DNA from: Acidithiobacillus sp.
Lineage (GTDB): Bacteria > Pseudomonadota > Gammaproteobacteria > Acidithiobacillales > Acidithiobacillaceae
DNA length: 64,000 bases
Direction: 5' to 3'
NCBI RefSeq assembly: GCF_023256195.1
Contig: NZ_JAGDWX010000023.1
Span: 193,275-257,274, forward strand
In this document: positions 7,355-23,046 of the stretch, in pieces
Numbering within the stretch: position 1 is the stretch's first letter
Layout: the number at the start of each line of letters is the position of its first letter
Position numbers and translations under genes: made by a program
Notes under the pieces: model-generated
Told to the model about the DNA's origin: nothing
The model's database searches: none
The model's input: the letters and a program-made list of their open reading frames with translations, nothing else

Positions 7355-7372
7355 AATCGTAGAAATAATAGG

Positions 7373-9221: not shown

Positions 9222-9256
9222 ACGGGGCCGGCGCTCACCGCGCTGGCCCCGCTCAT
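9222..9256. terminator. Hairpin between convergent genes
   Basis: CGGGGCCGGCGC and GCGCTGGCCCCG form a long stem around a CTCACC loop, midway between the convergent MscS-like and PEBP genes. It would fold on either strand. There is no clear T-run, so I call it a bidirectional terminator only tentatively. Confidence 0.5.
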
Positions 9257-9287
9257 GGTGACCGATCTCGGGCACCGGTCCTGAGAC

Positions 9288-9845: not shown

Positions 9846-9919
9846 ACGGGATCTCCTTTTTTACAGGAACACCCCTTCAGTCTAGACGAGAGATGACGAT
9901 TGTGCCGATGTGTCCGTCC

Positions 9920-10711
9920 CTAGAGTCCGGTGGCGCGGCGAATGAGGGGGAAATACCAAGAGTAGGGTAGACAGCGCAGCCAATGAAAGCGACGGGTAAA
10001 GGCTTTGGGGAAATGGATCTCGAAACTCCGACCCTCCAGCCCACGCAGCAGCAATTGTGCCGCTGCCTCGGGCTGCAGGAGGTGGGGCATGGCAAAATCG
10101 TTCTGCGCTGTGAGGGGAGTGGCGACAAAGCCCGGATGGATGACCTGCACACGTAGGCCGCGCGGCTCGAGGTCAAGGCGCAGGATCTCCGCAAAATGGG
10201 TGAGGGCCGCCTTGCTGGGACCGTAGTAGAGGGATTTGGGTAGGCCGCGAAGACCTGCCACGCTGGAGGTCAGGGCAATATGGCCCGCGCCCGCCTCGAG
10301 GAAACTCGGCAGCACGCAGGATACCGTGCGTAGCGCCCCCAGGTAATTGATATCGAGGATATCCCTGGCCCTGCCCACGTCCAGCTCCCAGGACCGTGCC
10401 GGCACGTAATTGCCGGCCAGGTAGAGCAGTAGGTCAATGCCGCCCCAGGCCTCACGGATACGCTCCCAGGCGACGGCTACGCTTTCGTCCGAGCGGACGT
10501 CCATCGCCACCGCCAGGTGTGCGTTTGGAGCCGGATCCTGTGCGCCTTGGGAAAACTCGGTGCGGAGCGCATCCAAGCTATCCTGGCTGCGCGCACTGAT
10601 GGCAAGTTGGGCGCCGGCGCGGGCCAACTCACGGGCGCAGGCGGCACCGATACCGGAACTCGCGCCCACCAGCCAGCAGCGCTTGCCACGCCAGAAGGAG
10701 GGAGAACTCAT
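9920..10711 (-). CDS. Short-chain dehydrogenase/reductase
   Basis: A 263-aa classical SDR. It has the NAD(P) motif GASSGIG near residue 17, an N-x-A-G-like LAGNYV segment, the catalytic Ser in LTSSVAG and an intact Tyr-x3-Lys in YYGPSK. A C-terminal basic-aromatic tail may touch the membrane. The ATG at 10711 overlaps the stop of the upstream DUF3833 gene (ATGA), so translation is probably coupled. An SDR is a frequent member of light-induced photolyase/Cfa/DUF1365 gene sets; the substrate is unknown. Confidence 0.85.
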   Translation of the reverse strand: MSSPSFWRGKRCWLVGASSGIGAACARELARAGAQLAISARSQDSLDALRTEFSQGAQDPAPNAHLAVAMDVRSDESVAVAWERIREAWGGIDLLLYLAGNYVPARSWELDVGRARDILDINYLGALRTVSCVLPSFLEAGAGHIALTSSVAGLRGLPKSLYYGPSKAALTHFAEILRLDLEPRGLRVQVIHPGFVATPLTAQNDFAMPHLLQPEAAAQLLLRGLEGRSFEIHFPKAFTRRFHWLRCLPYSWYFPLIRRATGL

Positions 10712-11286
10712 CGGATGGTCTCGCCCGAACGTGGGTACTGAGCCATGGCGGCACGGTTGTCGGGGGTGTTCTCTAGCCGGTGTATCTCGATGCTCACCTC
10801 GCCGATATAAAAGCCGAGAAAGAACATCCGGGTGCGATTGATCACGTGATCGGCGTCGATAAGGTACATCCAGTCGTCGGCACGGAGTTTGTAGAACTTG
10901 CCGCCCACGGGCTGACGCACCACATAGCGCCAGTGCATCGCGTAGCCGAGACTCTCGCCTTTGGCCTCGCCGACGATATCGCCAGCGCTCCCCTTGGCCG
11001 TGCCGACAAAATGACCGTGATCTTCCAACTCCAACTGCCAGAGGCGTTCCGCTGTCGTGGTCTGACCGCGGTCGTCCAGAAACAGAAAGCGTTCGCTGAG
11101 GCTGCCGCGCTCGCCCTGCCAGGTACCCAGCAGATGCATCACGAAACGATTGCGCACGCGCCCCGAGCGATCCTGAAAGATCCCCGTCGCAACACTCGGC
11201 CCATCGAAGAACTGGTCGAGGCGGAATTCCGGTGAGGAATTGCCGTAGGGGCGCAGTCTGCTGGAATAGCTCTGGGCTTCGCTCAC
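10708..11286 (-). CDS. DUF3833 family protein (copy A, no signal peptide)
   Basis: A 192-aa protein matching the DUF3833 pattern: an early F-x-G-P-x-x-A-T-G-x-F-Q-D-R-S-G block, central MHLLGTWQG, then TAKGSAGD and the ADDWMYLID motif. A second copy is encoded at 17332-17925 with the same blocks (FNGPLIATGMFQNRSG, MMGTWEG, TAEGSAGD, ADDWMYMIE). This copy has no lipoprotein signal, which is unusual because the other copy does. No biochemical role is established; the family co-occurs with Cfa-like and photolyase genes. It lies 12 nt after the membrane-protein gene and overlaps the SDR start. Confidence 0.85.
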   Translation of the reverse strand: MSEAQSYSSRLRPYGNSSPEFRLDQFFDGPSVATGIFQDRSGRVRNRFVMHLLGTWQGERGSLSERFLFLDDRGQTTTAERLWQLELEDHGHFVGTAKGSAGDIVGEAKGESLGYAMHWRYVVRQPVGGKFYKLRADDWMYLIDADHVINRTRMFFLGFYIGEVSIEIHRLENTPDNRAAMAQYPRSGETIR

Positions 11287-11298
11287 GTCGGACTCTCC

Positions 11299-11916
11299 TC
11301 AGGACTGAGTTACCACTTTGTAGCGCAAGACGGCACGCCGATGCCTCGGCAGATTGATTTTCGCGAGGACGCCGAGAGCCGCCGCCGCCGCCACGGCGAT
11401 GGCCGCGGCATTGACGCTGAAAAGCTGCGTGCCGCTTTCGTCCCGACCCAAGACGAAAAGTAACTGAAGTAGATAGGCGAAGGGAAGATAAATGGCGAGA
11501 GCGGTGACAAAAAAGCGCTCCCACTGCCGATGATTCTGCATGAGCCAGCGAAATTCCAGAACACCGGCGCCGATCAGCCAGAGGCTCGCCATGAGGAGCA
11601 GGCTCGCCAATGCAGCACCCGTGACCAGCCCCAGAAGCACGCTGGCACCGAAGGCGATGTCGGCGCTGGAACGCCAGATGAGGCCTCGAACGGCGCTCAG
11701 GGGCTGCTTTCCTGCTAGCGTGTGGCGCAGGCAAAAGAGCCCGTGGCCCAGATTGTAGCTAGCGAAGAATCCTAGGGTCAGGGGCAGCCACTGGTTTGCC
11801 CAGAGCAGGACCGCCAGGGCGTAGGTCACAAGGAAGGCCGCCCGCAAGGCAAGGAAGCTCGGGCGGCACAGGATCCAGCTCGTTGCTTGTCCGTGCCATT
11901 TTTCGGTAGACGTCAT
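11299..11916 (-). CDS. Unknown membrane protein, about six helices
   Basis: A 205-aa protein that I do not recognise. It has about six hydrophobic helices starting near residue 20, a conserved-looking HGLFCLRHTLAGKQPL loop, and a basic C terminus. The general layout recalls small HdeD/DUF308 membrane proteins, but I see no diagnostic motif. The ATG at 11916 is preceded by AGGAGG, itself directly after a terminator-like hairpin with a T-run (11934-11955). It sits between the 67-aa gene and DUF3833 copy A, all on the same strand. Confidence 0.65.
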   Translation of the reverse strand: MTSTEKWHGQATSWILCRPSFLALRAAFLVTYALAVLLWANQWLPLTLGFFASYNLGHGLFCLRHTLAGKQPLSAVRGLIWRSSADIAFGASVLLGLVTGAALASLLLMASLWLIGAGVLEFRWLMQNHRQWERFFVTALAIYLPFAYLLQLLFVLGRDESGTQLFSVNAAAIAVAAAAALGVLAKINLPRHRRAVLRYKVVTQS

Positions 11917-12184: not shown

Positions 12185-13246
12185 TCAGGCGTTGACGGCG
12201 ACGGCCGCCGACTGGTACAGATCCGCCACGGCACGGGAGCCGGCGGACTGACCCTGAGCGATGGAGTCGTCGATGGTTTCCGGGCCCGTGGCTGCGCCGC
12301 AGACGTAGATGCCCTTGCGGGTCGTCCCCTGACTGTTGGTGTACTGCTCGGCGCGGTCGATGAAGCCGTGCTTCTCCAAACCGATGCCGAAAACCTTGGC
12401 AATCTCGGGATTGAGCGCATTGGGATCCATGCCGATGGCGTGCACCACCATGTCCATGGGGATGACGATGGGACGCTTCACCAGGGTGTCCTCACCCTTG
12501 ACCAGCAGACGACCGTCCGGGGACTTGGTCACCTCGGCGATACGCGCCTTGACGAACTTGGTCTTGTACTCTTCCTGGCTCTTCCAATAGAACTTGTCTT
12601 CGTAGAGCCCAAAGGTGCGGATGTCCATGTAGTAGATGAACACATCGGTGCTCGGCGACAGCTCCTTGATCTCCATGGCGAGGTTGGTGGAGACGGTGCA
12701 GCAGATCTTGGAGCACCACTCACGCCCGATCTGCCGGTCCCGCGAACCCACACAGAGGAGGATGGCCACCCGCTCGGGGACGCGCCCATCCGAGGGACAG
12801 CGAATCTGCCCGGCACCCACCATCTGCTCCATCTGTGTGGTGGTGAGCACGTCCTCGTAGGTACCGAAGCCCCACTCCGGCTTATTGATGGAATCGAAGT
12901 GGGTGAAACCCGTGGCCAGCACGATGCTGCCCGCCTCCACCTGCTGCCCGTTGCTCAGGTGCGCCGTGAAGTTGCCGGCCTCACCGTCCAGCTGCGTCAC
13001 CTTGGTGGACTTGTGGATGCTGACGTTACCATTGCCATCCACGCGGCTGACCATGCGGCCGATGGCATCCTTGGCCCATTCTCCAGAGGGCACCAGCTTG
13101 GCGTAACCGGAAATGATGGGCGCGCCACCGAGGACGTCCTCTTTCTCGACGATGACCGCCCTCTTGCCCATGGCCGCCACCGTAGCCGCCGCCGACAGGC
13201 CCGCCGGGCCCGCACCTACTACCAGAACCGTGTCTTGATGTGCCAT
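12185..13246 (-). CDS. hdrA: HdrA-like FAD/Fe-S oxidoreductase (sHdr type), orphan
   Basis: A 353-aa flavoprotein of the heterodisulfide-reductase subunit A family, the short form of the sulfur-oxidising sHdr complex. The dinucleotide motif GAGPAG lies near residue 10 and GGAPIISG near 39. The iron-sulfur signature Cys165...Cys178-S-K-I-Cys182-Cys183 is intact, and the closing FAD motif is CGAATGPETI. In sHdr systems HdrA works with HdrB and HdrC, but neither is nearby. The ATG at 13246 has CGGAGGAA upstream; the longer frame crosses the promoter. It is the first gene after the MerR regulator, with its own promoter and adjacent operator. Function without HdrBC is unknown. Confidence 0.85.
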   Translation of the reverse strand: MAHQDTVLVVGAGPAGLSAAATVAAMGKRAVIVEKEDVLGGAPIISGYAKLVPSGEWAKDAIGRMVSRVDGNGNVSIHKSTKVTQLDGEAGNFTAHLSNGQQVEAGSIVLATGFTHFDSINKPEWGFGTYEDVLTTTQMEQMVGAGQIRCPSDGRVPERVAILLCVGSRDRQIGREWCSKICCTVSTNLAMEIKELSPSTDVFIYYMDIRTFGLYEDKFYWKSQEEYKTKFVKARIAEVTKSPDGRLLVKGEDTLVKRPIVIPMDMVVHAIGMDPNALNPEIAKVFGIGLEKHGFIDRAEQYTNSQGTTRKGIYVCGAATGPETIDDSIAQGQSAGSRAVADLYQSAAVAVNA

Positions 13247-13276: not shown

Positions 13277-13321
13277 AGTGTAGGACTCCTCCGGGACAGT
13301 GTCAATGGTATGTACTATACA
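13277..13321 (-). promoter_or_regulatory. hdrA-operon promoter with TGTA-N3-TACA operator
   Basis: On the minus strand, TTGACA (13305-13300), a 17-bp spacer and TACACT (13282-13277) form a strong sigma70-type promoter ending about 30 nt before the hdrA ATG. Just upstream of the -35 lies TGTATAGTACA (13311-13321), a palindrome with a 3-bp centre. The same 11-mer occurs at 23170-23180 in the photolyase/FAD-oxidoreductase control region, which suggests one regulator for both. Confidence 0.75.
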
Positions 13322-13329
13322 AAATGCGG

Positions 13330-14274
13330 TCAGCTCAGATTGCCTGGATTCCAATGCTCGACCGCGCCCAGCAGGTCCTGGAGCCGAGAAAAACAGGGGC
13401 CTGGATACTCCTCCTTGAGTTCGGTGGCGCCGCTGCCGCTGAGCCAGAGACTGATACTGGGCGGGATATTGTCCTGTATCTGTTTAATCCATTGCCGACT
13501 GTCGCCATTCACCGAGGCGGCGGATATGGCCAACTGCAGCACGTGGACAGGACAGTGCCGCAGACAGGGAAGAATGTCCTCCAGCGGCGGCTCAGGGCCG
13601 AGGAACAGCACGTCCACGCCCTTGCCCAGCAGCAGGACGCGCGTCATCTGTACTTCCAAGGGGCGGCCTTCCCCAGGGAGGCTCATGAGCAGGATCCGCA
13701 GGCTGTCGTCTGGCGCGGGCGGGATCTGCGCTGCGGCCAGTTCCAGAGTCTCCAGAAGGAGTTCCTGGGCGGCCCGCTCGGCAAAGGTGGGCAGGCTCTG
13801 GTCCAGGCGGCTGCGTGCCATGCGAAGCAGCAACGGCGCTGCCAACTCCATGACCCAATTCTGGGCGCCATCCCGAGCCAGCTCCTGGCGCAAGAGGTGA
13901 CGCAGGCTACGCAGATCGATGTCCGTGAGAGCCTTCCAGGCCTTGTCCAAGGCTGGATTGGCACGCGGGCTGATAGCGGCTGGGGAGGGAATTTCACGCA
14001 ACAGGCGCTCCAGCCGCTGCGGCTCTGCCCCCACCACGAAACCGGGACGGTAGCCAGCGTTGAGTAGACGGTTGATGTCGTGCAGGCGCTGGATCTGACT
14101 GCGGCTGTACAGGCGGTTGCCGGCGGCATCCCGGGTCGGCACCGGAAAGCCGTAGCGCCGTTCCCACATGCGTAGCAGTTCCTTGGAGATGCCCGTCTCC
14201 TGCTCCACCACGCTGATGGGGAACTGGGGCTGTTCTTCCAGGGGGACGGATTTCGGTGTATTCGTTTTGTCCAA
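13330..14274 (-). CDS. MerR-family regulator with degenerate B12-binding domain (LitR/CarH-like)
   Basis: A 314-aa regulator. The N-terminal MerR helix-turn-helix (about 18-85) has the CarH/LitR hallmark LRMWERRYGFP and the wing NRLYS. A helical bundle and a C-terminal Rossmann-like domain follow, as in CarH. The B12 signature E-x-H-x-x-G is replaced by E202-G-R204-P-L-E207, and the helical-bundle E-H pair reads E166-R167, so the B12 contacts appear lost. This parallels B12-independent LitR proteins (class II) that use a separate photoreceptor. The start is a TTG at 14274 with AAGG upstream. It is divergent from the pyp operon. Confidence 0.85.
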   Translation of the reverse strand: MDKTNTPKSVPLEEQPQFPISVVEQETGISKELLRMWERRYGFPVPTRDAAGNRLYSRSQIQRLHDINRLLNAGYRPGFVVGAEPQRLERLLREIPSPAAISPRANPALDKAWKALTDIDLRSLRHLLRQELARDGAQNWVMELAAPLLLRMARSRLDQSLPTFAERAAQELLLETLELAAAQIPPAPDDSLRILLMSLPGEGRPLEVQMTRVLLLGKGVDVLFLGPEPPLEDILPCLRHCPVHVLQLAISAASVNGDSRQWIKQIQDNIPPSISLWLSGSGATELKEEYPGPCFSRLQDLLGAVEHWNPGNLS

Positions 14275-14349
14275 GACGATACCTTGACATTGCGTGTGGG
14301 CGGGTTACCCTTCGCTCATGATCCCCATTGTACCGAAGCTTGGACAAAA
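14265..14349. promoter_or_regulatory. Divergent merR/pyp control region with inverted 11-mers
   Basis: The 11-mer CTTGGACAAAA occurs at 14339-14349 on the plus strand and, inverted, at 14265-14275 over the regulator start codon. A looser palindrome, TTGTACC-GAAGCTT-GGACAA, spans 14329-14347. I see no confident -35/-10 pair for either direction. These repeats could be autoregulatory operators but differ from the TGTATAGTACA sites. Confidence 0.35.
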
Positions 14350-14419
14350 ATGGCACAACCCGATCTGAGAGCTGGCACTTCGGTCTTGGTCTGCTCGTGC
14401 GAGTGATGAGCCTGTGTCC

Positions 14420-14818
14420 ATGAAAAGCTTTGTTCCACAAGCCATAATGGAGCATCTGGACAGTCTGAACCAGAGCCTGGCCGATCAGCAGAGCTTCGGT
14501 ATCATCGGCTTGGACGTCCAGGCCATAGTACGAATCTTCAACAAGGCGGAAGAGCGCCTCAGCGGATTGCCCGCCAGCGAGGTGCTGAATCGATCCTTTT
14601 TCGATGAAGTGGCGCCTTGTACCGCCAGCCGCCTTTTTCGGGGACGTTTTCGCGCAGGTCTGGAGCGCGGCAGTCTCGATGAGCATTTTTTTTACACCTT
14701 CACCTATCGAATCCGACCCGTTTCGGCCCACATCCACATGCTGTACCGGCCAGCCCAGAGCCCTTTGGTCTTTCTTTTCGTCGACCGTGTCATACCCTTG
14801 TTCGAGGATCTCGGATGA
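14420..14818 (+). CDS. pyp: Photoactive yellow protein (PYP) homologue
   Basis: A 132-aa PAS-fold protein resembling Halorhodospira PYP along its length: an early FGIIGLD block, FNKAEERLSG, SFFDEVAPCT and a C-terminal FLFVDRV strand. Cys67 in VAPCT corresponds to the chromophore thioester Cys69. Glu44 corresponds to Glu46, Phe40 to Tyr42 and Ser48 to Thr50. The Arg52 position is Leu50 and the Met100 position is Ile, so photocycle speed and colour may differ. The ATG at 14420 is chosen; a GTG at 14414 would add two residues. It is divergent from the LitR-like gene and overlaps the next gene by ATGA. It should need p-coumaroyl-CoA for its chromophore. Photoactivity is inferred. Confidence 0.88.
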   Translation: MKSFVPQAIMEHLDSLNQSLADQQSFGIIGLDVQAIVRIFNKAEERLSGLPASEVLNRSFFDEVAPCTASRLFRGRFRAGLERGSLDEHFFYTFTYRIRPVSAHIHMLYRPAQSPLVFLFVDRVIPLFEDLG

Positions 14819-15150
14819 ACGCTGCCTTGGAAGTATCCGGTACCAAGCTCGACGATTTTCTGGATTGGGTGGAGATCCTGCGCGCCCAGAACTTCCACAC
14901 CGAAGATCTGGAGACGGAGCAGCAATTCCTGGCCTACCTGGTTCTGCGCGGTGTCTGGCACCTGCTGAACAACGCCTATCAGGGCGATGGCCGGGGGTTT
15001 TTAACCGTCGAGCAGACTCGTGGCCTGCAGGAGGTAGACGCGCAGATTGCCGAGCTGGAGCGGCAGCTGCCGCCCGGAGCGGTCACAGAGGTGCGAAGCT
15101 GCATCGCGCGACTGCTGCGCCTAGTGGACGAGCATGAGCACAGCGACTAG
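14815..15150 (+). CDS. Unknown 111-aa protein in pyp operon
   Basis: An acidic, mostly helical 111-aa protein without a recognised family. It has an aromatic segment FLDWVEILRAQNFHTEDLE, a WHLLNNAYQGDG segment, and a C-terminal heptad-like helix ending in acidic and His residues. No signal peptide or membrane helix is present. Its ATG overlaps the pyp stop (ATGA) and its end overlaps the ligase start by 17 nt, so it is translated within the pyp operon. It could be a partner of PYP or of the ligase; that is inference from position only. Confidence 0.7.
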   Translation: MNAALEVSGTKLDDFLDWVEILRAQNFHTEDLETEQQFLAYLVLRGVWHLLNNAYQGDGRGFLTVEQTRGLQEVDAQIAELERQLPPGAVTEVRSCIARLLRLVDEHEHSD

Positions 15151-16543
15151 GCAAGCGCTCCTGCAGAGCCTCGAAGCGGGTCTGCATTCGGGCTTCGCCA
15201 TGGAGTGGCAGGCCCCCGATCCCGCTGCGGGGATTCGCATTTGGCCCGGTCCGGCACTCTGGGCCTGGGCTCGGCGCCTGGCCAGCGCATGGCGGCGACC
15301 GTCCCTGCCCCAACGCCCGCGGGTGGCGGTACAGGTGCCCAATAGCCCCTTCTACCTGGCCGCCATGATCGCCACCTGGATGCTGGACGGTATTTTCTGC
15401 CCGCTGCCGGCCTGGCGCGGCGAACAGACGGCCATCGCCTTGGACGCACTGCGGCCCGATCTCTTCCTGAGGCATGCGGGCGGGAGCCTGGAACTGCAGC
15501 GCGGGGAGCGCGCCGATAGGGCAATTGCCGACCCCGCTGATCTGGCCCTGATGCTGTGGACCTCTGCCAGCCTGCACGCACCGCGCGTCTTCGGTCTCAG
15601 TCACGCCGCGCTGGGCTGGCAACTCCACAGCCACCTGCCTTTGCTCGCGCTGCAGCGTGACAGCCTCGTCCGCAATTGTCTGCCTTGGACCCACGTCTTT
15701 GCCGGAGTCCTGGAACTGCTGCCGACCCTTGCCAGTGGCGCGAGCCTGCGGGTGGCCCCCCTGGCCAGTTTTCGTCAGGAGTCCTTCACCCACCTCTTCG
15801 TCGTACCGCGAGTGGCAGCACTGCTCCAGGATAGCCAGATCCGCGCCTTGGCTGGCGGTATCGTCGGGGGAGCTCCCATTGCCGCCGAGCTGGCAGAGCG
15901 TTTGCGCGGCAGCGCCCTGCGCGTGGGCTACGGACAGACGGAGGCGGGTCCGGGAATCTGTCTTGGAGATCCGGGAGACTTTCGTCCGGCCTTCCTTGGA
16001 CGAAGCCTGGTGGAGGCGGAACAGCGTGGGGGGACGCTGCACTATCGTTCACCCGGTCAGGCTCTGGGAGAATGGCGTGCCGGCCGTTGGCAGCCGATCC
16101 AGCACGACGGCTGGGTGGACAGTGGCGACCGCGTGCGGTGCGACGATGATGGCGGTTGGTACTGGTTGGGACGGCGTGATGCGCGTTTCGTCCTGGCCGA
16201 TGGCCGCAACGTCGAGCCAGAGCTCGAGGAGTTGCGTCTGCTGGGGCAGTATCCTGAGCTCGCCACACTGGTGCTGGGTGGCCCTGGCGCCCGCCACTCC
16301 CTGGCTCTGGCGAGGTTGCAGCCAGACCTTACGGCGCAGGGGGAGGCATCCTTGCGACGACGCTGGCACGAGCCCTACCCGCTGCGCATTGCCAGCGACG
16401 GTTTTTGGGATGCTTACCTGGGTCCCAGCGGTAAAGTTCAGCGCGGTAAACTCTACGCGCGTTGGCAGGGGATCGTCCGGGGCGACCGAGATGTGTGCAC
16501 AGGTCATGGAAATTACGCGGCACTGGAAGAGGGTCGAGCATGA
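15134..16543 (+). CDS. AMP-forming acyl/aryl-CoA ligase-like protein (possible p-coumarate ligase)
   Basis: A 469-aa member of the adenylate-forming ANL superfamily. Later motifs are intact: GYGQTEAG (A3/A5 type), DSGDRV, the hinge GRRDARFVLADGR followed by a P-E-L-E core, and the C-terminal catalytic Lys in GPSGKVQRGK. The usual phosphate-binding TSGTTGxPKG is degenerate here (WTSASLHAPRV), so activity is uncertain. PYP chromophore loading needs a p-coumarate:CoA ligase, commonly encoded beside pyp, which makes that role attractive. An acyl-ACP synthetase is the alternative. No tyrosine ammonia-lyase is present in the window. It overlaps both neighbours. Confidence 0.75.
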   Translation: MSTATRQALLQSLEAGLHSGFAMEWQAPDPAAGIRIWPGPALWAWARRLASAWRRPSLPQRPRVAVQVPNSPFYLAAMIATWMLDGIFCPLPAWRGEQTAIALDALRPDLFLRHAGGSLELQRGERADRAIADPADLALMLWTSASLHAPRVFGLSHAALGWQLHSHLPLLALQRDSLVRNCLPWTHVFAGVLELLPTLASGASLRVAPLASFRQESFTHLFVVPRVAALLQDSQIRALAGGIVGGAPIAAELAERLRGSALRVGYGQTEAGPGICLGDPGDFRPAFLGRSLVEAEQRGGTLHYRSPGQALGEWRAGRWQPIQHDGWVDSGDRVRCDDDGGWYWLGRRDARFVLADGRNVEPELEELRLLGQYPELATLVLGGPGARHSLALARLQPDLTAQGEASLRRRWHEPYPLRIASDGFWDAYLGPSGKVQRGKLYARWQGIVRGDRDVCTGHGNYAALEEGRA

Positions 16544-17283
16544 ACAAAGGCAAGCTGTTGATCACGGGCGCCAGCGGCGCATTGGCGCAAGTCTGTATAC
16601 CCATGGCCCAGGCTCAGGGCTGGGAGGTTCTGGCCGTGAGTCGCGCAGTCCAGCCGACCACGGCGACGATGGACACGCGCTGGTGGCGTGCCGATGTGTC
16701 GCAGATGGATGAGGTGGATGGCCTCTTCAAGGCCCTGCAGGGCGAAGACGCCGTCCCCGACGCCCTCCTGCACCTGGCCGGTTCCTTTCTCTTGGCGGGC
16801 CTTGGTCAAACCTCGGAACTGCAGTATCGGCAGTGCCTGAGCGCCAATCTGGATTCGGCCTTCTTTACCTTGCGCGCCTTCGTCGCCGCTCGTCGCAGGG
16901 CCGGCGGTGGGGGTGCTGCAGTTTTTGTGTCTTCGGTTGTGGCCGAGATCGGGGTGGCCTTTCACGAGGCGGTGGCAGCGGCCAAGGGGGGCCTGGAAGC
17001 CATGGTTCGGGCAGCCGCCGCGACTCACGCCCGCGACGGTATCCGTATCAATGCCGTTGCATCCGGGCTCATGGACAGCCGGGCGGCGGCGCACCTGCTG
17101 CGCAACCCGCAATCGCGGGAGTTGGCAGCCAAACAGTATCCCTTGGGTGGCCTGATCCCGCCGGAGCAGGTAGCGCGCATGTTGCTGACGCTGGTCGATC
17201 CGGACAATGGCCAAATTACCGGCCAGATCCTCCCCGTCGATGGCGGTTTCACCGCCATCCGCCCGCTGGTTACTGGAAGCTGA
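16540..17283 (+). CDS. SDR-fold protein lacking the catalytic tyrosine
   Basis: A 247-aa protein with a classical SDR scaffold: ITGASGAL at the N terminus, HLAGSF, SANLDSAFFTLRA, FVSSVVAE, and a C-terminal VDGGF typical of FabG-like enzymes. The active-site Tyr-x3-Lys is changed: the segment reads AVAAAKGG, so the Tyr position is Val while the Lys remains. The third Gly of the cofactor motif is Ala. It may be catalytically dead or specialised. The start ATG overlaps the ligase stop (ATGA). It is the last gene of the pyp operon, ending at a hairpin between convergent operons. Confidence 0.8.
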   Translation: MNKGKLLITGASGALAQVCIPMAQAQGWEVLAVSRAVQPTTATMDTRWWRADVSQMDEVDGLFKALQGEDAVPDALLHLAGSFLLAGLGQTSELQYRQCLSANLDSAFFTLRAFVAARRRAGGGGAAVFVSSVVAEIGVAFHEAVAAAKGGLEAMVRAAAATHARDGIRINAVASGLMDSRAAAHLLRNPQSRELAAKQYPLGGLIPPEQVARMLLTLVDPDNGQITGQILPVDGGFTAIRPLVTGS

Positions 17284-17331: not shown

Positions 17332-17925
17332 TTATTTCTCCTGCGACACCATGGCGCGATTGGCGGCGGTGTCCGGGAGCTTATGCATCTCCAGCGTGAT
17401 TTCGCCGGCGTGTATGCCATACCAGGTGACGTCGGTGCGGTCGATGACGACATTGGGCTCGATCATGTACATCCAGTCGTCGGCGTGGAGATTATAGAAA
17501 CTCTTGCCAACCGGTTGCTTGACGTCGTAGCTCCAGTGCAGGGCAAAACCATAGGCCTTGCCCGAGGCGCTCTTCACATCTCCCGCTGAGCCCTCGGCCG
17601 TACCAGTGAATTCGTGATCGTTGACCTCCGTCAGGTGCCAGGTGCGGTTGGCGTAGGTCTTCTTGCCGTCCGGATCGATGTAGGTGAAATGCTCCACCAG
17701 GGTTCCCTGATTGCCCTCCCAGGTCCCCATCATGCGCACCACGAAACGATTGACGGCCTTGCCCGAGCGGTTCTGGAACATGCCGGTCGCGATCAGGGGG
17801 CCGTTGAAGAATTCCTTGAGACGGAACTTGGGCGTGGTGTGGGCGTAATCCTTGGGTACGGTAGCGCAGCCGGACAGGGCGGCGATGACGGCAACACCGA
17901 GGACGACTTTGCTTGCGGTTTTCAT
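17332..17925 (-). CDS. DUF3833 family lipoprotein (copy B)
   Basis: A 197-aa DUF3833 protein with a lipoprotein signal (hydrophobic segment ending LSGC, Cys near residue 20), so it is probably anchored in the outer membrane or periplasm. It keeps the same blocks as the copy at 10708-11286, including MMGTWEG, TAEGSAGD and ADDWMYMIE. The ATG at 17925 overlaps the MFS stop (ATGA), placing it last in the six-gene operon that starts at 23046. The family role is unknown; genomic association with Cfa-like methyltransferase and photolyase genes suggests envelope lipid handling. Confidence 0.88.
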   Translation of the reverse strand: MKTASKVVLGVAVIAALSGCATVPKDYAHTTPKFRLKEFFNGPLIATGMFQNRSGKAVNRFVVRMMGTWEGNQGTLVEHFTYIDPDGKKTYANRTWHLTEVNDHEFTGTAEGSAGDVKSASGKAYGFALHWSYDVKQPVGKSFYNLHADDWMYMIEPNVVIDRTDVTWYGIHAGEITLEMHKLPDTAANRAMVSQEK

Positions 17926-19232
17926 GAGGCGACTCCCTTCTTGAGTACGGTGATGTTTCGGATTTCGACGGCTCCCAGCTCCATGAGCAGGATGGCCGCC
18001 ACTTTGATGAGCGCGGGCACGATGGCGTAGGCGACGCTGAGCAGCCAAAGGTGCACGCCGGGCCGGAAACCGGACCACTGCAGAAGCGGCAGAATGATAC
18101 CGGCACCCAGGGCGGTGGCGGCCTTGGCCACCCAGTTGAAGAGGCCAAAATAGTTGCCCGCACGTGCGTCGCGATCGTGGTCGGTGTGATCGGCAAGGAT
18201 GCTGGGCGGCAGCGCCTGATCGGCGCCCAGGGTGAGGCCCGTGAGCACACAGATGACACCATAGGCCCAGGCGTCGCCAGGCCCCAGGAAGACGGCGCTG
18301 GTAAAGGCTAGGGTGCTGAGGAGCATGGCGGCAGACCAAGTGCGGGCCTTGCCGAGCTGGGTCGAGAGGGCAAGCCAGACCGGCATACCCAAGGCACCGG
18401 ACAGGAAATAAACCAGGAGAAAGAGCGGTGCGAGAAGCTTGGTGTGCAGGATCTCGTCCACAAAGAAAAAGAACAGGGTTGCGGCGACGGCATTGCCCAT
18501 CTGCGACAGGGTGTATACCCCCAGCAGCCGGCGCAGGGCCGGCCGGCGCAGGGGCTCGTAGAAGGTCCACCAGGGTTTGCGATTGCCGGACACCGGTCGG
18601 CGCATCGTGGGCCTCCACAGAGGTAGAAAGGCCAAAATCAGGGTCAGCGCAAAGATGAGTACGAAGATCTGAAGGCCAGCTTCGGCGCCGTAGCGTCTTT
18701 CGAGAAACTGGGGCAGAGCCGCCGCCAGCAGCACCCCCACCAAGGCTCCCGCCTCGCGGGCGGTGGTGAGCCAGGTGCGGCCGTTGTAGTCCCGGGTAAG
18801 TTCTGCTCCGAGGGCCTGATAGTTGAGGCTGGTGAGGCTATAGGAGACGTAGAACAGCGTCAGTGCCAAGGCCAGACTCCAGACCAGGCCGATCTGCTGC
18901 CAGGGCTGAAACAACAGGAAAAAACCGAGGACCATGCCCGGTATGCCCGCCAGGATCAGGCGCAGTCGACTGCCGACGGCTTCGGCCCAGAGATCGCTCC
19001 AATGGCCGATGAGGGGATCGAGCACGGCGTCGGCCAGGCGCAGCACCAGCAGGAGTCCTCCCAGCAGAGCCAGGGAGAGCCCGTACTGCGTGGCATAGAG
19101 GTGCGGGATGAGGAGGTAGACCGGCAGAGCACCGAAAGCCAGGGGCAGGCCCAGCGGCGCATAGGCCGCCAGCAGGCCCGCGGCGGGCCGTCCGGCAAGC
19201 CAGCCAGGGTGCCGCTGCCGATCCCTGTTCAC
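17922..19232 (-). CDS. MFS (GPH/MelB-like) transporter
   Basis: A 436-aa membrane protein with about 12 hydrophobic helices. An early D-A-V-L-D-P-L-I-G-H-W-S-D motif is typical of the glycoside-pentoside-hexuronide/MFS_2 group. A cytoplasmic loop near the middle has basic residues. Its stop overlaps the DUF3833 start and its start is 4 nt from the chalcone-isomerase-like gene. In this neighbourhood a lipid or lipid-linked substrate is as plausible as a sugar; nothing in the sequence decides. Confidence 0.82.
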   Translation of the reverse strand: MNRDRQRHPGWLAGRPAAGLLAAYAPLGLPLAFGALPVYLLIPHLYATQYGLSLALLGGLLLVLRLADAVLDPLIGHWSDLWAEAVGSRLRLILAGIPGMVLGFFLLFQPWQQIGLVWSLALALTLFYVSYSLTSLNYQALGAELTRDYNGRTWLTTAREAGALVGVLLAAALPQFLERRYGAEAGLQIFVLIFALTLILAFLPLWRPTMRRPVSGNRKPWWTFYEPLRRPALRRLLGVYTLSQMGNAVAATLFFFFVDEILHTKLLAPLFLLVYFLSGALGMPVWLALSTQLGKARTWSAAMLLSTLAFTSAVFLGPGDAWAYGVICVLTGLTLGADQALPPSILADHTDHDRDARAGNYFGLFNWVAKAATALGAGIILPLLQWSGFRPGVHLWLLSVAYAIVPALIKVAAILLMELGAVEIRNITVLKKGVAS

Positions 19233-19783
19233 GACTCCCCCAGCAGGGCCTTGCGAAGCTCGGGGACGGGTGTTTTGGGGCTGAGCCAGATACTGAAGAA
19301 GGCGGGGCCGAAGCTCGGATCGTCGATGCGGCTGTACACCTTGCCGTTGAAGAAGAACTCGGTGTACTGACCGGGAACACAGAGTCCCACCAGCACATCG
19401 CCGCTTTTGACGCTGGGAAAGGCCCGCTCCAGATCCTGCGCCCAGCGTGCCTCCTGCGTCCGCATACCCGGGTTGAGCTTGAGCATCTCCTTGAGGGAGG
19501 TACGGGCCAGCTCGGCCGCGCTGAAATTACGCTCGTAGCGGATGGCCAAGGCAAAGGGTCGCTCCGGCGAGTAGCCGCTGCCGGTAACGTAGAGGGCGGC
19601 ATCGTAGACACTGAAGAAGAGCCAGTTCAAGTGTCCGGCGCCCAGCAGATGCAGACCCTCCACCTGCGCCGCCGCGCGTTCGGGCAGGGGGACGGAGACG
19701 CTGGCCAGGGCGTCCAGAGGAATACCCAGTGTCGCGGTCAGCAGCAGTATGCGCGCGAGACGCTTCCAACGATGATCAGGCAT
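19229..19783 (-). CDS. Chalcone isomerase-like periplasmic protein
   Basis: A 184-aa protein with an N-terminal signal peptide (basic start, hydrophobic core, likely cleavage after ALA near residue 27). It matches the chalcone-isomerase-like fold seen in bacterial envelope operons: YDAALYVTG, ALAIRYERNFSA, LNPGM, and a late FFNGKVYSRIDDPSFGPAFFSIWL block. Flavonoid chemistry is not expected; members are thought to bind fatty-acid-like ligands. The ATG at 19783 overlaps the end of cfa by 8 nt, and the stop overlaps the MFS start. Confidence 0.8.
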   Translation of the reverse strand: MPDHRWKRLARILLLTATLGIPLDALASVSVPLPERAAAQVEGLHLLGAGHLNWLFFSVYDAALYVTGSGYSPERPFALAIRYERNFSAAELARTSLKEMLKLNPGMRTQEARWAQDLERAFPSVKSGDVLVGLCVPGQYTEFFFNGKVYSRIDDPSFGPAFFSIWLSPKTPVPELRKALLGES

Positions 19784-20993
19784 GGGAGAGCGTCCACTGG
19801 CCGACGTCCAGTTCTTTTTCGGCGAAGCCTGCCTCGCAGTAGCTGAGATAGAACCGCCACAGTCTACGGAAAGCGGCATCGAAGCCCAGCGCAGTCAGGG
19901 CCTTGGTCTCGCGATCGAAGGATTCCCGCCAATGCTTGAGGGTCAGCGCGTAATCGAGACCGAAATCCAGACGCCCCAGCACCTGCAATCCCGCCGCCGC
20001 GAGGCTTTGGGAAAAGCGGGTGGGGGAGGGCAGCAGACCTCCGGGGAAGACGTATCGGCGGATGAAATCGGAACCGCTGGCGTAACGCTCGAAGCGCTCG
20101 TCGCGGATGCTGATGGTCTGGATTACGGCTCGCCCGCCGGGCTGCAACAGTTGGTGGACCTGGCCGAAGTAGGTGGACCACCACTCTCGGCCGACGGCCT
20201 CGAACATCTCGATGGAGACGATGCCATCGTAGCGGCCAGCTTCGTCGCGATAATCCTGGTAGTGAAAGCTGGCCAGCCCATCCAAGCCCAGACGAGCGAT
20301 GCGCTGCTCGGCATATTCCCGCTGTTCCCGCGATAGGGTGAGACCGCGCACGCGATAGCCTTGGCGGGCGGCGAGCTCAGCGAAGCCCCCCCAACCACAA
20401 CCGATCTCCAAGATCTCCGCACCGGGGCGCAGTTGCAGGGCGTCCAGGACCGCCTGATATTTGGCTCGCTGTGCGTCCTCCAGGCTCTGCTCACGATCGT
20501 TGCCGTAGTAGGCGCTGGAATAGGTCATGCTCGGGTCCAGCCAGAGAGCATAGAAATCGTTGCCGAGGTCGTAGTGCTGGGCGATGTTGCGGCGACTGCC
20601 CTTGCGGCTGTTGCGACGCAGCAGCTGGTCGGCCAGCCAGTACAGGCCGCGCCGGGCCCAGTGACCCTGGATGCAGTCCTCGAGCAGATGGCGATTGCGC
20701 AGGGCCAGGCGGATCAGGGCGGTGAGGTCCGGGCTGTCCCAGTCACCGTCGCGATAGCTGCGACCGAAACCGATGTCGCCGTCGCGCAGCGTGGCAGCCA
20801 CCGCCGCCCAGTCGTGGATCTGCCACTCGGCTTCGAGCCCGGCGGCCTGACCCCGGAAGGTCCAGATCTCGCCGGCTGGCCCGCGCACCGTCAGCTGGCC
20901 TTCCGGCAGCCGTTCCAGGAGGTTGAAGAGCAGACGTGCCGAGGCGGGTAGACGCGTACTGCGCCGCGCCGGGGTCGCGGTAACGGTATTCAT
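19776..20993 (-). CDS. Cyclopropane-fatty-acid synthase-like methyltransferase
   Basis: A 405-aa SAM-dependent methyltransferase of the Cfa family, acting on unsaturated acyl chains of phospholipids. The N-terminal lipid-binding region carries GDIGFGRSYRDGDW; the family hallmark HYDLGNDFY is at 140-148 and the SAM motif EIGCGWGG at 196-203. Related genes beside DUF1365 and an FAD oxidoreductase belong to light/singlet-oxygen regulons, and some such methyltransferases make furan or methylated fatty acids rather than cyclopropanes. I cannot tell which from sequence. The start overlaps the DUF1365 stop. Confidence 0.88.
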   Translation of the reverse strand: MNTVTATPARRSTRLPASARLLFNLLERLPEGQLTVRGPAGEIWTFRGQAAGLEAEWQIHDWAAVAATLRDGDIGFGRSYRDGDWDSPDLTALIRLALRNRHLLEDCIQGHWARRGLYWLADQLLRRNSRKGSRRNIAQHYDLGNDFYALWLDPSMTYSSAYYGNDREQSLEDAQRAKYQAVLDALQLRPGAEILEIGCGWGGFAELAARQGYRVRGLTLSREQREYAEQRIARLGLDGLASFHYQDYRDEAGRYDGIVSIEMFEAVGREWWSTYFGQVHQLLQPGGRAVIQTISIRDERFERYASGSDFIRRYVFPGGLLPSPTRFSQSLAAAGLQVLGRLDFGLDYALTLKHWRESFDRETKALTALGFDAAFRRLWRFYLSYCEAGFAEKELDVGQWTLSHA

Positions 20994-21721
20994 GAACTGA
21001 TCTCCTCGGAAGGGGGAACGGGTTTGCTATGAAAGGGGACGCGGGCGCGCCACAGTTTCAGCGCCTGCCAGTGGATGCGCCCGGTAACGGCCAGGGTCAT
21101 GAGCGGATAGCGTCCCACACTGCGCCAGACCGAGCTGCGATCGAGGTTCGTGCGCCGCCCTGCCAGTTGAGTGATGAGCAGCACCTTGCCGGCATCGTCC
21201 AGGTAGTGGATGTCGGCCCGAAAGTGCTGGTCGTCGAGGGCGAAGCGGAAGCGATATCGGCCCTCCACCGCAAAGAAAGGCGAGACGTGGAAGACCTTGC
21301 GGGCTTCGATCCAGTCCTGTGCCGCGATGGCCCGGCGGTCGTCGTGGGCAACGAGGTAACTGTGGTGCTCACCGAAGGTATTGTTTACCTCCGCCAGCAC
21401 CCCACGCAGGACGCCGTCGGCATCCAGACCCAGCCAGAAGCTGACGGGTTTGAAGGTATATCCCCACAGGCGGGGGTAACAGACCAGCACGACCCGTTCC
21501 GCGACGATGCCGTGTCGGGAAAAGATCTCCTGAATCCAGGGCAGGAGCGGACTGCCGTCGCGGGCGCCATGATCCTCGGTCCGAAACCGTACTGGACAAA
21601 AACCGGACAGGATTCGCCGTACCGCGGCCTCGTCCTGCAGATCAAAGCTCAGGTGGAATCCGCCGTAACGAAAGCCCGGCCGCCGCGGCTGCAGACGCCG
21701 ATGCACGACCTCGCTCGTCAA
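20990..21721 (-). CDS. DUF1365 family protein
   Basis: A 243-aa protein recognised as DUF1365 from the opening VVHRRLQPRRPGFRYG, the PRLWGYTFKPVSFW block, the E-V-N-N-T-F-G-E-H segment, and KVFHVSPFF. I place the start at a TTG at 21721 (AAAGGAG upstream), 12 nt after the FAD-oxidoreductase stop, because conserved sequence begins there; longer frames run into that gene. DUF1365 genes regularly sit between an FAD oxidoreductase and a Cfa-like gene. The biochemical role is not established. Confidence 0.85.
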   Translation of the reverse strand: MTSEVVHRRLQPRRPGFRYGGFHLSFDLQDEAAVRRILSGFCPVRFRTEDHGARDGSPLLPWIQEIFSRHGIVAERVVLVCYPRLWGYTFKPVSFWLGLDADGVLRGVLAEVNNTFGEHHSYLVAHDDRRAIAAQDWIEARKVFHVSPFFAVEGRYRFRFALDDQHFRADIHYLDDAGKVLLITQLAGRRTNLDRSSVWRSVGRYPLMTLAVTGRIHWQALKLWRARVPFHSKPVPPSEEISS

Positions 21722-21732
21722 CCACGCTCCTT

Positions 21733-23046
21733 TCACAACGCCGGCTGTGGACACAAAATCTCCTGTGCTGCTGCGTTGGAGTGGGCCGCATCCTGCCAGG
21801 GTGCAGCGATTCCCAAGGCATTGGCGACGGCGACGGCGCTGCGCAGGCCGTCCTCGTGAAAACCATGACCGAGCCAAGCGCCAGCGAAGTAGAGACCGCC
21901 CTCGCCCTGCCGCGCGCGCAGGCTTTCCTGGGCTTGCAAGGCGGCGCGGTCAAAGACCGGGTGAGCATAGTCGATCCGACGCCAGACCAGACTTGGATCG
22001 GGATCGCGCTCGGGATTGAGGGTGACGATGATGGGCTCGTCCACCCCCAGGGGCTGGAGGCGATTGATGAGGTAGCTTACGGCAACGGCGCGAGCGCCGT
22101 CGCGCTGCTCTTCCTGATGAAAGTTCCAGGCGGACCAGGCGGCCTCACGCCGCGGCAGGAAACTGCGGTCGTGGTGCAGCCAGGCGCGGTTTTCTTGGTA
22201 GCGTATGGCGCTCAAGGCCGCTGCGGTATCGGGCCAGGCGTCTCCCACCAGTGTTGCGGCTTGGTCGCTATGTACGGCGCAGACGACGAGGTCGAAATGT
22301 TCGGAGTCGGAGCCGGTGTGGACCCGGATCCCGCCATCGGGAGCAGGCTTCAATGCGGTGACGGGTTGCCCGAGGCGAACATCGGGCAGCTGCGCGAGGA
22401 TGCGCTGCACGTATTCGCGGCCGCCGCCGCGCACGGTGCGCCACTGCGGCCGATGGAAGACGTTGAGCAGACCGTGGTTCTCATAGAAACTCAGCAGGGA
22501 GCGGGCGGGATATTCGGTCATCTGGGCCACGGGGCAGGACCAGATGGCAGCTGCCATGGGCAACAGATAACCCTCTCGAAACCAGGCTCCGTAGCCACCG
22601 CGGTCGAGGAATTCACCCAGACTGCAGTCCTCCGCCGGAGAGCGCAGCCAAGCCTTGGCCCTGCGGTTGAAGCGCAGGATGTCGCGCAGCATGATCCAGA
22701 AGCGGGGTCGTGCCAGGTTGCGTCGCTGGGCGAAGAGGGCGGCGAGGTCCGTGCCGCTCCACTCGAGATCCCACTCGCGGATGCGCACGCTGAAGGACAT
22801 ATTGCTGGGAGCCGTCTCCACGCCGAGCTCGGCGAAGAGCCCGAGCAGGTGCGGATAGGTCCAGTCGTTGCACACCAGAAAGCCCGTATCCACGGGGATA
22901 TTCCGCCCTTCCCAGGGCACGTCGACGGTGTGGGTGTGGCCACCGGGGCGGGAGTCCGCCTCGAAGAGGGTCACGTGGTGATGCGGACGCAAAAGCCAGG
23001 CGCTCCCGAGACCTGCTATACCGCTACCGATCACTGCTACACGCAT
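21733..23046 (-). CDS. FAD-dependent oxidoreductase (flavin amine-oxidase/desaturase-like)
   Basis: A 437-aa flavoprotein. The FAD-binding motif GSGIAGLGSAW starts at residue 7, with the acidic end of the second strand and an RPGGHTHT loop after it. A late LYFAGAWLGHGFHEDGL segment closes the FAD site. The family includes carotenoid-desaturase-like and amine-oxidase-like enzymes and is the usual partner of DUF1365 and the Cfa-like protein; it probably acts on lipid acyl chains (inference). The ATG at 23046 has GAGGAAG upstream. It is the first gene of the operon running to 17332. Confidence 0.87.
   Translation of the reverse strand: MRVAVIGSGIAGLGSAWLLRPHHHVTLFEADSRPGGHTHTVDVPWEGRNIPVDTGFLVCNDWTYPHLLGLFAELGVETAPSNMSFSVRIREWDLEWSGTDLAALFAQRRNLARPRFWIMLRDILRFNRRAKAWLRSPAEDCSLGEFLDRGGYGAWFREGYLLPMAAAIWSCPVAQMTEYPARSLLSFYENHGLLNVFHRPQWRTVRGGGREYVQRILAQLPDVRLGQPVTALKPAPDGGIRVHTGSDSEHFDLVVCAVHSDQAATLVGDAWPDTAAALSAIRYQENRAWLHHDRSFLPRREAAWSAWNFHQEEQRDGARAVAVSYLINRLQPLGVDEPIIVTLNPERDPDPSLVWRRIDYAHPVFDRAALQAQESLRARQGEGGLYFAGAWLGHGFHEDGLRSAVAVANALGIAAPWQDAAHSNAAAQEILCPQPAL

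What the first reader, a model, noticed from the sequence alone, without database searches (positions are those of the whole stretch)
13330..14818. PYP photoreceptor divergently paired with a B12-less LitR/CarH-type repressor
Seen: a 132-aa PYP homologue with the chromophore Cys (VAPCT, Cys67) and Glu44 (E46 equivalent), head to head with a MerR protein of CarH/LitR layout. Known: CarH/LitR usually senses light through B12, and class II LitR proteins instead rely on a separate photoreceptor (a short LOV protein in Pseudomonas). Inference: here PYP replaces LOV or B12 as the light-sensing partner of the repressor. I know of no described PYP-LitR module, and PYP outputs are mostly unresolved.
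Basis: partly seen in the sequence, partly recalled or inferred. Interest (0 to 1): 0.95.

Follow-up and report, generated by a model that had tools for sequence, protein, structure and literature searches.

The report
PYP light switch for B12-less repressor
In sulfur-oxidising acid-loving bacteria, the gene for a homologue of the blue-light receptor PYP sits back to back with the gene for a CarH-like DNA-binding protein that has lost key vitamin-B12-binding residues, so PYP likely serves as this protein's replacement light sensor and is predicted to switch on a photoprotection gene set.

Summary
PYP (14420-14818) is divergent from a CarH/LitR-fold MerR gene (13330-14274). Of 29 Acidithiobacillaceae genomes searched, 13 have this PYP; the same 13 have the MerR, always head to head, plus the AMP ligase and the cluster's DUF1365 gene; the other 16 have none of the four. 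In all 13 MerR proteins W131, H142 and H177 of the AdoB12 site are gone (H177 is Arg); E141 remains in 8. Of 106 listed outside relatives 101 keep all four. On an Azoarcus plasmid a MerR with all four stands divergent to the same operon, suggesting a sensor swap. A conserved TTTGT-N5-ACAAA-type site lies at the pyp, hdrA and FAD-oxidase promoters; its core TGTACTATACA occurs exactly twice in the 1.98-Mb genome, both times here. PYP keeps Cys69 and Glu46; Tyr42 is Phe. Most likely lit PYP is an anti-repressor of this MerR, as short LOV is for class II LitR; interaction is untested. Two surprises: no aromatic ammonia-lyase (PF00221) in 13 of 13 PYP genomes, and a duplicate hdrA behind the operator. 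No PYP-LitR module appeared in three literature searches or in the main text of two PYP surveys; their supplements were not read.

The parts
14420..14818 (+). pyp: single-domain photoactive yellow protein homologue, 132 aa (alternative GTG start at 14414)
   Evidence: Cys67 = Cys69, Glu44 = Glu46, Phe40 = Tyr42 of H. halophila PYP
13330..14274 (-). CarH/LitR-fold MerR regulator without W131, H142 and H177 of the AdoB12 site; predicted dark repressor
14265..14278 (+). candidate operator O1 TTTTGTCCAAGACG, 5 bp upstream of the -35-like TTGACA (14284-14289), -10-like TACCCT 14306-14311; overlaps the annotated merR TTG start
   Evidence: half-site present in 13 of 13 merR-pyp regions, shuffles mean 1.4 (max 5)
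14339..14349 (-). second, inverted half-site TTTTGTCCAAG downstream of the pyp promoter
   Evidence: the same inverted site only in this genome and G001; other genomes carry another second site or none
14815..15150 (+). orf111, 111 aa, no family; overlaps the pyp stop codon
   Evidence: found in 12 of 13 PYP loci by tblastn
15134..16543 (+). compact AMP-binding ligase, predicted to load the PYP chromophore; no close match to ligases of other PYP loci
   Evidence: 13 of 13 next to pyp on the same strand
16540..17283 (+). SDR (FabG-like) at the end of the pyp operon
   Evidence: in 11 of 13 PYP genomes, within the island stretch in 9
13300..13324 (-). hdrA promoter site: TTTTGTATAGTACA (13311-13324) + 5 bp + TTGACA (13300-13305); contains TGTACTATACA on the other strand
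   Evidence: TTTGT-N5-ACAAA-type dyad at the same spacing in 12 of 12 scored regions, shuffles mean 1.05 (max 4)
12185..13243 (-). HdrA-type flavoprotein gene; a second hdrA copy tied to the PYP island
9920..11916 (-). protein without a family (11299-11916), DUF3833 (10708-11286), SDR (9920-10711)
17332..23046 (-). light-type operon: FAD amine oxidase (21733-23046), DUF1365 (20990-21736), CFA-type synthase (19776-20993), chalcone-isomerase-like (19229-19783), MFS (17922-19232), DUF3833 (17332-17925)
   Evidence: same order on Azoarcus plasmid pAZKH
23170..23180 (-). candidate operator TGTACTATACA between the FAD-oxidase operon and the photolyase-related gene
   Evidence: a similar dyad in 10 of 11 complete FAD-oxidase upstream regions, at varying distance
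23320..24843 (+). deoxyribodipyrimidine photolyase-related protein (DPRP, PF04244), divergent from the FAD-oxidase operon

Best explanation
PYP and a CarH/LitR-type MerR protein that lacks key B12-binding residues are encoded back to back in all 13 PYP-bearing Acidithiobacillaceae genomes found, and blue-light-activated PYP would likely bind this predicted repressor and release it from predicted TTTGT-N5-ACAAA operators, switching on a predicted photoprotection regulon. In the dark the MerR protein is inferred to sit on operators just upstream of the -35 boxes of pyp and hdrA and in the FAD-oxidase/photolyase intergenic region. Light would isomerise a thioester-linked hydroxycinnamoyl-type chromophore on Cys67, the PYP signalling state would act as anti-repressor, and induced genes would supply photolyase-type repair, lipid modification and a spare HdrA subunit. 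Because pyp and merR share the controlled promoter region, the system would amplify its own sensor. Shown by sequence: gene order, co-occurrence, loss of three B12-site residues, retention of Cys69 and Glu46, conserved sites at three promoters. Inferred: chromophore, light response, binding, repression and regulon output.
For: Co-occurrence: PYP, MerR (E <= 1e-94), AMP ligase (E <= 1e-113) and DUF1365 (E <= 1e-83) are found in the same 13 of 29 family genomes and at no such level in the other 16, of which 12 are at least 90% complete. Divergent order 13 of 13. W131, H142 and H177 lost in 13 of 13 genomic MerRs and in 15 of 15 listed family sequences; all four site residues kept in 101 of 106 listed outside relatives. 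PMC11796333 (passages) calls W131, E141, H142 and H177 key for AdoCbl binding in CarH and reports a protein with Arg at the H177 position that bound only OHCbl, not AdoCbl or MeCbl; ours have Arg there. CarH fold kept in the model. Sites: 13 of 13 merR-pyp regions (shuffle mean 1.4), 12 of 12 hdrA promoters (mean 1.05), 10 of 11 FAD-oxidase regions (mean 2.0); exact core TGTACTATACA found twice in the genome, both here. Azoarcus pAZKH: MerR with the full B12 signature divergent from the same operon, with TTTGTCCTAGACAAA between them. Precedent: PmlR2 and short LOV, light-dependent binding and anti-repression; the pmlR1 region holds photolyase, FAD oxidoreductase, SDR and ufaM genes (PMC9758184).
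Against: No interaction, spectrum or expression data. The sites were defined on the same sequences used to count them; the reversed control pattern gave 2 genome matches within 1 mismatch against 3 for the real pattern, so only the placement of the two exact hits is informative. At pyp only a half-site is recognisable: full-dyad scoring found 0 of 13 (with a region cut at the merR start). E141 of the B12 site is still present in 8 of 13 MerRs, the window's included. No PF00221 ammonia-lyase in 13 of 13 PYP genomes, so the chromophore source is unknown. The adjacent ligase is not close to the ligases of other PYP loci. Tyr42 is Phe and Arg52 is Leu in 13 of 13. The MerR sits on a long branch. 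In the other PYP loci examined (5 genomes, 6 annotated plasmid stretches) no MerR neighbour was seen. The island is present or absent as a block, so co-occurrence alone does not prove a physical partnership.
Confidence: 0.62

Rival explanations
1. The MerR protein senses another cue of light stress (singlet oxygen, redox or a lipid oxidation product) by itself, and PYP is one of its target genes that signals to another partner, for example orf111.
For: PYP lies behind the same type of site as the other predicted targets. orf111 follows pyp in 12 of 13 genomes. In V. cholerae a MerR-like protein mediates a blue-light response that its authors model as ROS-driven (PMC5241685, passages).
Against: A CarH-type regulator without its B12 residues and a photoreceptor gene always at its back resembles the tested LOV pair (PMC9758184). 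A new sensing motif in the MerR was not looked for, so this rival is not excluded.
Confidence: 0.2
2. The protein is a PYP-fold relative that no longer works as a p-coumarate photoreceptor and senses or carries another aryl or acyl thioester, made by the adjacent ligase.
For: No PF00221 enzyme in 13 of 13 PYP genomes. Tyr42 is Phe and Arg52 is Leu in 13 of 13 genomes. Score below the TIGR02373 cut-off. The ligase is unlike those of other PYP loci.
Against: Cys69 and Glu46 are invariant. Y42F occurs in about 9% of PYPs and the family definition rests on Cys69 (PMC9664959, passages). Many pyp operons lack TAL and uptake of p-coumarate has been suggested (PMC12826048, passages). The setting is a light-type operon with a photolyase-related gene.
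Confidence: 0.15
3. The genes travel together as a photoprotection island and PYP acts elsewhere in the cell; the shared promoter region is only co-regulation.
For: The island is present or absent as a block. Island hdrA copies of 9 genomes form one clade beside the other hdrA copy of the window's genus mate, not with the other copy of their own genomes, which suggests transfer between genera.
Against: Head-to-head order and the promoter-proximal site survive in all 13 genomes while other parts of the island are rearranged or lost: SDR2 moved or missing, permease, photolyase, TspO and nitroreductase genes inserted.
Confidence: 0.1

Closest known systems
Short LOV (PmSB-LOV) with class II LitR (PmlR2), Pseudomonas mendocina (PMC9758184)
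   Same: Stand-alone small photoreceptor of the PAS kind encoded near a LitR/CarH-type MerR that is not thought to bind B12; related target genes (photolyase, FAD oxidoreductase, SDR, UfaM-type synthase); predicted anti-repressor logic.
   Different: Photoreceptor is PYP (cysteine thioester chromophore), not flavin LOV; the MerR is a separate clade in my tree, which held no class II reference; candidate operator is TTTGT-N5-ACAAA-like, not TGTACA-N12-TGTACA; direct binding shown there, not here.
CarH / class I LitR (Thermus, Bacillus, Myxococcus)
   Same: MerR HTH plus helical bundle plus Rossmann domain; CarH is the top structural match.
   Different: W131, H142 and H177 of the AdoB12 site are gone; a separate photoreceptor gene is attached.
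Azoarcus sp. KH32C pAZKH MerR and its divergent operon
   Same: Same FAD oxidase-DUF1365-CFA-chalcone isomerase-MFS-DUF3833-SDR order; TTTGTCCTAGACAAA in the intergenic region; MerR 33% identical to the window's.
   Different: Its MerR keeps the full B12 signature and no PYP is listed within about 6 kb.
Canonical pyp operon (pyp-pCL-TAL, Halorhodospira type; a similar order seen here in L109)
   Same: PYP followed by an AMP-forming ligase; L109 also has an SDR 44% identical to the window's SDR2.
   Different: No PF00221 ammonia-lyase found in the PYP-bearing Acidithiobacillaceae; the ligase is not close to that of L109.
BluF-BluR (E. coli), as cited in PMC9758184
   Same: Blue-light receptor acting on a MerR-type regulator.
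   Different: BLUF flavin receptor; named from the paper, not compared here by sequence.

Membership tests
PYP family | Chromophore cysteine (Cys69), the criterion of Xing et al., PMC9664959 | tested here: met
   Cys67 in the window; Cys in 13 of 13 genomic PYPs and 13 of 13 database homologues
PYP family | Glu46 and Tyr42 hydrogen-bonding pair | tested here: inconclusive
   Glu46 in 13 of 13; Tyr42 is Phe in 13 of 13 genomes, a substitution known in about 9% of PYPs
PYP family | NCBIfam equivalog TIGR02373 cut-off 143.05 bits | tested here: not met
   85.6 bits, E 2.7e-24; so it is a divergent member in the wide sense, not an equivalog
PYP family | PYP fold | tested here: met
   Model against 2phy TM 0.84; PYP entries or PYP domains fill the top 36 places of the PDB list
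PYP family | p-coumaroyl thioester and photocycle | not testable with these tools
   needs protein
CarH / class I LitR (B12 photoreceptor) | AdoB12 residues W131, E141, H142, H177 | tested here: not met
   W131, H142 and H177 absent in 13 of 13 genomes; E141 present in 8 of 13
CarH / class I LitR (B12 photoreceptor) | MerR HTH with four-helix bundle and Rossmann domain | tested here: met
CarH / class I LitR (B12 photoreceptor) | NF052513 curated cut-off 400 bits | tested here: not met
   86.8 bits
Class II LitR (LOV-paired) | LitR/CarH-type protein without B12 capacity | tested here: met
   by residue loss only; binding itself not tested
Class II LitR (LOV-paired) | Groups with Pseudomonas PplR/PmlR in a tree | not tested
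   no reference sequence of that class was fetched; the clade stands alone among 46 rows
Class II LitR (LOV-paired) | Operator T(G/A)TACA-N12-TGTA(C/T)A | tested here: not met
   no match to TGTACA-N12-TGTACA within 2 mismatches in 13 merR-pyp regions; the degenerate positions were not scored
Class II LitR (LOV-paired) | Adjacent short LOV protein | tested here: not met
   the adjacent photoreceptor gene is PYP; no genome-wide LOV search was run
pCL-TAL chromophore pathway | Ammonia-lyase (PF00221) in the genome | tested here: not met
   0 of 13 PYP-bearing genomes (one, G017, is only 69% complete); the control search rings in 5 of 14 control genomes

The most novel reading that the evidence does not exclude
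A third photoreceptor class has been swapped onto the CarH/LitR repressor scaffold: PYP itself is the light-driven anti-repressor of a transcription factor, loaded by its own ligase through a route that needs no tyrosine ammonia-lyase, and it commands a photoprotection island that includes a light-inducible spare copy of the sulfur-oxidation flavoprotein HdrA.
Probability: 0.4. Interest if true: 0.93.

Novelty: new variant of a known kind. Interest (0 to 1): 0.86.

Why it matters
PYP's signal transduction chain is called an important gap in knowledge in the 2025 family survey (PMC12826048, abstract). Here is a minimal two-gene candidate, PYP and a DNA-binding partner, with defined candidate operators that can be tested in vitro. 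It would show that LitR/CarH repressors accept interchangeable light inputs (B12 inside, LOV outside, PYP outside) while keeping much the same target operon, would give a PYP-based gene switch, and raises the question of how PYP gets its chromophore where no ammonia-lyase is found.

Tried and rejected
Class II LitR operator TGTACA-N12-TGTACA: not found within 2 mismatches in the 13 intergenic regions; replaced by the conserved TTTGT-N5-ACAAA-type site. First scoring of the pyp region gave 0 of 13 at 8 of 10 positions (shuffles mean 1.23), partly because the region was cut at the merR start, where the site lies; the half-site count replaced it and is descriptive, since the motif came from the same data. 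In one search two FAD-oxidase rows (G021, G017) were artefacts of truncated matches; one search dropped both, which leaves 11 regions. G009's hdrA promoter was seen by eye only and is not among the 12 scored.

AMP ligase as orthologue of the ligase of other PYP loci: not supported. A profile of 12 island ligases (window plus P0134-P0144) scored 61-96 bits on 17 other AMP-ligase loci and at most 12.3 bits on any ORF of 250 aa or more in five other PYP loci; the 17 loci had been picked because they matched the window ligase, so the comparison leans towards them. Idea that ligase plus SDR make p-coumaroyl from 4-hydroxybenzoate: no supporting gene was sought beyond these; SDR2 is missing in 2 of 13 genomes; kept only as speculation.

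PYP-LitR pairs elsewhere: 5 other PYP genomes among 369 of the class showed no MerR by tblastn (L110 has only 2.1 kb on one side). The 4 other phylum matches (L111-L114) were not inspected. Of 13 plasmid PYP records, 7 were opened: 6 annotated ones without a listed MerR within 4 kb (that gene table is incomplete), one without annotation. Complex modelling was not possible (single chains only). Viral contigs were not scanned. Light and Acidithiobacillus: one literature listing (listing only), nothing relevant among the 10 of 20 shown.

Full report
OBSERVATION. The window encodes a 132-aa PYP homologue at 14420-14818 (+) and a 314-aa MerR protein at 13330-14274 (-), transcribed away from each other. 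PYP matches solved PYP structures at E 2.4e-18, TIGR02373 at 85.6 bits (cut-off 143.05), and its model (pLDDT 88.8) matches 2phy with TM 0.84. In 13 of 13 genomes Cys69 and Glu46 are kept, Tyr42 is Phe, Thr50 Ser and Arg52 Leu. The MerR has CarH as best NCBIfam family and as best solved structure.

CONSERVATION. Among 57 related genomes, 13 of the 29 of the window's family have this PYP and 0 of the 28 outside it. Named records point to Acidithiobacillaceae: Igneacidithiobacillus contigs and Acidithiobacillus sp. YTS05, two of them with contig lengths equal to those of G009 and G007, and MerR and ligase proteins named Acidithiobacillus caldus. The same 13 genomes, and no other of the 29, hold the MerR at E <= 1e-94 (two others have only weak MerR matches, 1.2e-5 and 5.5e-5), the AMP ligase at E <= 1e-113 (others at best 5.7e-13) and DUF1365 at E <= 1e-83 (others none at 1e-10). 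Of the 16 without PYP, 4 are under 90% complete. merR and pyp are divergent in 13 of 13, and the ligase follows pyp on the same strand in 13 of 13, with orf111 detected between them in 12 of 13.

THE REPRESSOR LOST B12 RESIDUES. Aligned with T. thermophilus CarH, W131, H142 and H177 are absent in 13 of 13 genomic MerRs; H177 is Arg in all; E141 is still Glu in 8, the window's included. The same holds for the 15 family sequences (window plus P0014-P0027, whose gene context was not seen), of which 7 keep E141. All four residues are kept in 101 of the 106 other listed relatives; 14 of the 134 proteins found were not listed, and only the candidates sharing most words were scored. H177 is the lower axial cobalt ligand (PMC10442372, passages). 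PMC11796333 (passages) calls the four residues key for AdoCbl binding and reports that a protein with Arg at the H177 position bound OHCbl but neither AdoCbl nor MeCbl. The 15 form one clade at 100/100 support on a long branch, while three other proteins without the signature (P0115, P0116, P0126) sit elsewhere, so losses look independent. The model keeps HTH, helical bundle and Rossmann domain, with CarH bound to DNA as the top match.

SAME OPERON, DIFFERENT SENSOR. Between 17332 and 23046 (-) lie FAD amine oxidase, DUF1365, CFA-type synthase, chalcone-isomerase-like, MFS and DUF3833 genes, with a photolyase-related gene divergent from them. On plasmid pAZKH of Azoarcus sp. KH32C the same order (FAD oxidase 55%, CFA 52%, DUF1365 43% identical) stands divergent to a MerR gene whose product keeps all four B12 residues. 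In P. mendocina the pmlR1 region holds photolyase, FAD oxidoreductase, SDR and ufaM, and the homologue PmlR2 is controlled by a short LOV protein through light-dependent binding (PMC9758184, sections 3, 5, 7 and 15 read). I therefore read this locus as a third way of giving light input to one old operon.

OPERATOR. A site TTTTGT-N2-A-N2-AC stands in front of pyp and hdrA, and a related dyad in front of the FAD-oxidase operon. The core TGTACTATACA occurs twice in the window (shuffles mean 0.02), and a search of the 1.98-Mb genome found two exact copies, both in this locus, and one 1-mismatch copy in what looks by eye like a clpP-clpX region; the reversed control pattern had 2 matches within 1 mismatch, so the placement, not the number, is the evidence. 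Counts with shuffles: merR-pyp regions 13 of 13 with the half-site (mean 1.4, max 5); hdrA promoters 12 of 12 with at least 8 of 10 dyad positions (mean 1.05, max 4), in each the 15-bp dyad followed by 3 bp and TTGACA; FAD-oxidase regions 10 of 11 (mean 2.0, max 5), at varying distance from the gene. In the window the pyp-side site is 5 bp from TTGACA-N16-TACCCT and overlaps the annotated merR start, so autoregulation is likely. Azoarcus has TTTGTCCTAGACAAA in its intergenic region, close to TTTTGTCCAAGACGA here. The motif was found on these sequences, so the counts are descriptive.

CHROMOPHORE. No PF00221 ammonia-lyase was found in 13 of 13 PYP-bearing genomes (controls ring in 5 of 14; G017 is 69% complete). 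The pyp-linked ligase keeps YGQ[ST]EAGPG, SGD and a late GK motif (recalled as AMP-ligase landmarks), but is not close to the ligases of other PYP loci. An SDR of the pyp operon is found in 11 of 13 PYP genomes and 0 of 9 PYP-less ones tested, and a 44% relative lies downstream of a pyp-ligase-ammonia-lyase row in another gammaproteobacterium (L109). In one Acidithiobacillus locus (L020) an amino-acid-permease gene follows the ligase. How the chromophore is made or imported is open.

SPARE HdrA. The gene 12185-13243 encodes an HdrA-type flavoprotein. In 30 genomes searched, the 10 PYP-less members of the family and order have one match each; of 11 PYP-bearing ones 9 show two or more matches (some are fragments) and 2 show one, the window's own genome and G009; the 5' end of a further G009 copy is seen at a contig edge beside its merR. 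The island copies of 9 genomes form one clade (96/93), next to the other copy of the window's genus mate; that copy lies beside a cysteine-rich (CCG) HdrB-like protein. So one duplicate was caught behind the light-type site and apparently spread with the island. That it is the sulfur-oxidation (sHdr) HdrA rests on recall, and a light-inducible replacement for a light-sensitive flavoprotein is my inference. In G016 the island copy is interrupted.

LITERATURE. Searches for photoactive yellow protein with LitR (8 papers), MerR (24, 15 listed) and CarH (9) showed no PYP-LitR work in their listings (one review opened by passage). The two PYP family surveys do not contain the word MerR in their main texts and are not among the LitR or CarH listings; Xing et al. 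say that clade A PYPs are often next to unspecified transcriptional regulators. Supplements could not be read, so prior notice there is possible.

VERDICT. The pair is real and conserved, with clear signs of a sensor swap. PYP as direct anti-repressor is the best reading (0.62); it is untested.

Noticed in passing
window 12185-13243 and loci L118-L147: Duplicate hdrA tied to the PYP island, with a light-type site at its promoter; island copies of 9 genomes are one clade apart from the other hdrA copies.
   Followed up: partly
L158 (Azoarcus sp. KH32C pAZKH): B12-signature MerR divergent from the same FAD oxidase-DUF1365-CFA-CHI-MFS-DUF3833-SDR operon, with a TTTGTCCTAGACAAA palindrome between them.
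   Followed up: partly
L108 (G277), 1041-10986: An MCP-PYP fusion (PF00015 plus PAS) followed by a compact AMP ligase lies about 4-7 kb from a FAD oxidase-DUF1365-CFA cluster, a second link of PYP with this operon.
   Followed up: partly
L109 (G150), 4941-9911: pyp - AMP ligase - ammonia-lyase - formyl-transferase - SDR; the SDR is 44% identical to the window's SDR2.
   Followed up: partly
L020 11727-13103: Amino-acid-permease gene directly downstream of the pyp-linked ligase in an Acidithiobacillus genome; possible importer of a chromophore precursor.
   Followed up: no
L019 12443-15209, L027 3675-5693, L015 17552-18835: Genes inserted in the island of Igneacidithiobacillus-type genomes: DNA photolyase (L019, L027), nitroreductase (L019, L015), TspO/MBR (L019 by Pfam; L027 and L015 by eye).
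   Followed up: partly
L151, L152, L154, L155 (plasmid records): PYP homologues annotated as 'phosphonate transporter', probably a spreading misannotation.
   Followed up: no
window 14815-15150: orf111, a small protein of no known family, kept between pyp and the ligase in 12 of 13 genomes; possible PYP partner.
   Followed up: no
L157 (Comamonas endophytica plasmid), 2366-6906: B12-signature MerR gene about 3 kb from a BLUF gene.
   Followed up: no
P0013: A 141-aa PYP, 51% identical over 80%, that keeps Tyr42 and Arg52; a possible link between the family and canonical PYPs; its genome context was not seen.
   Followed up: no
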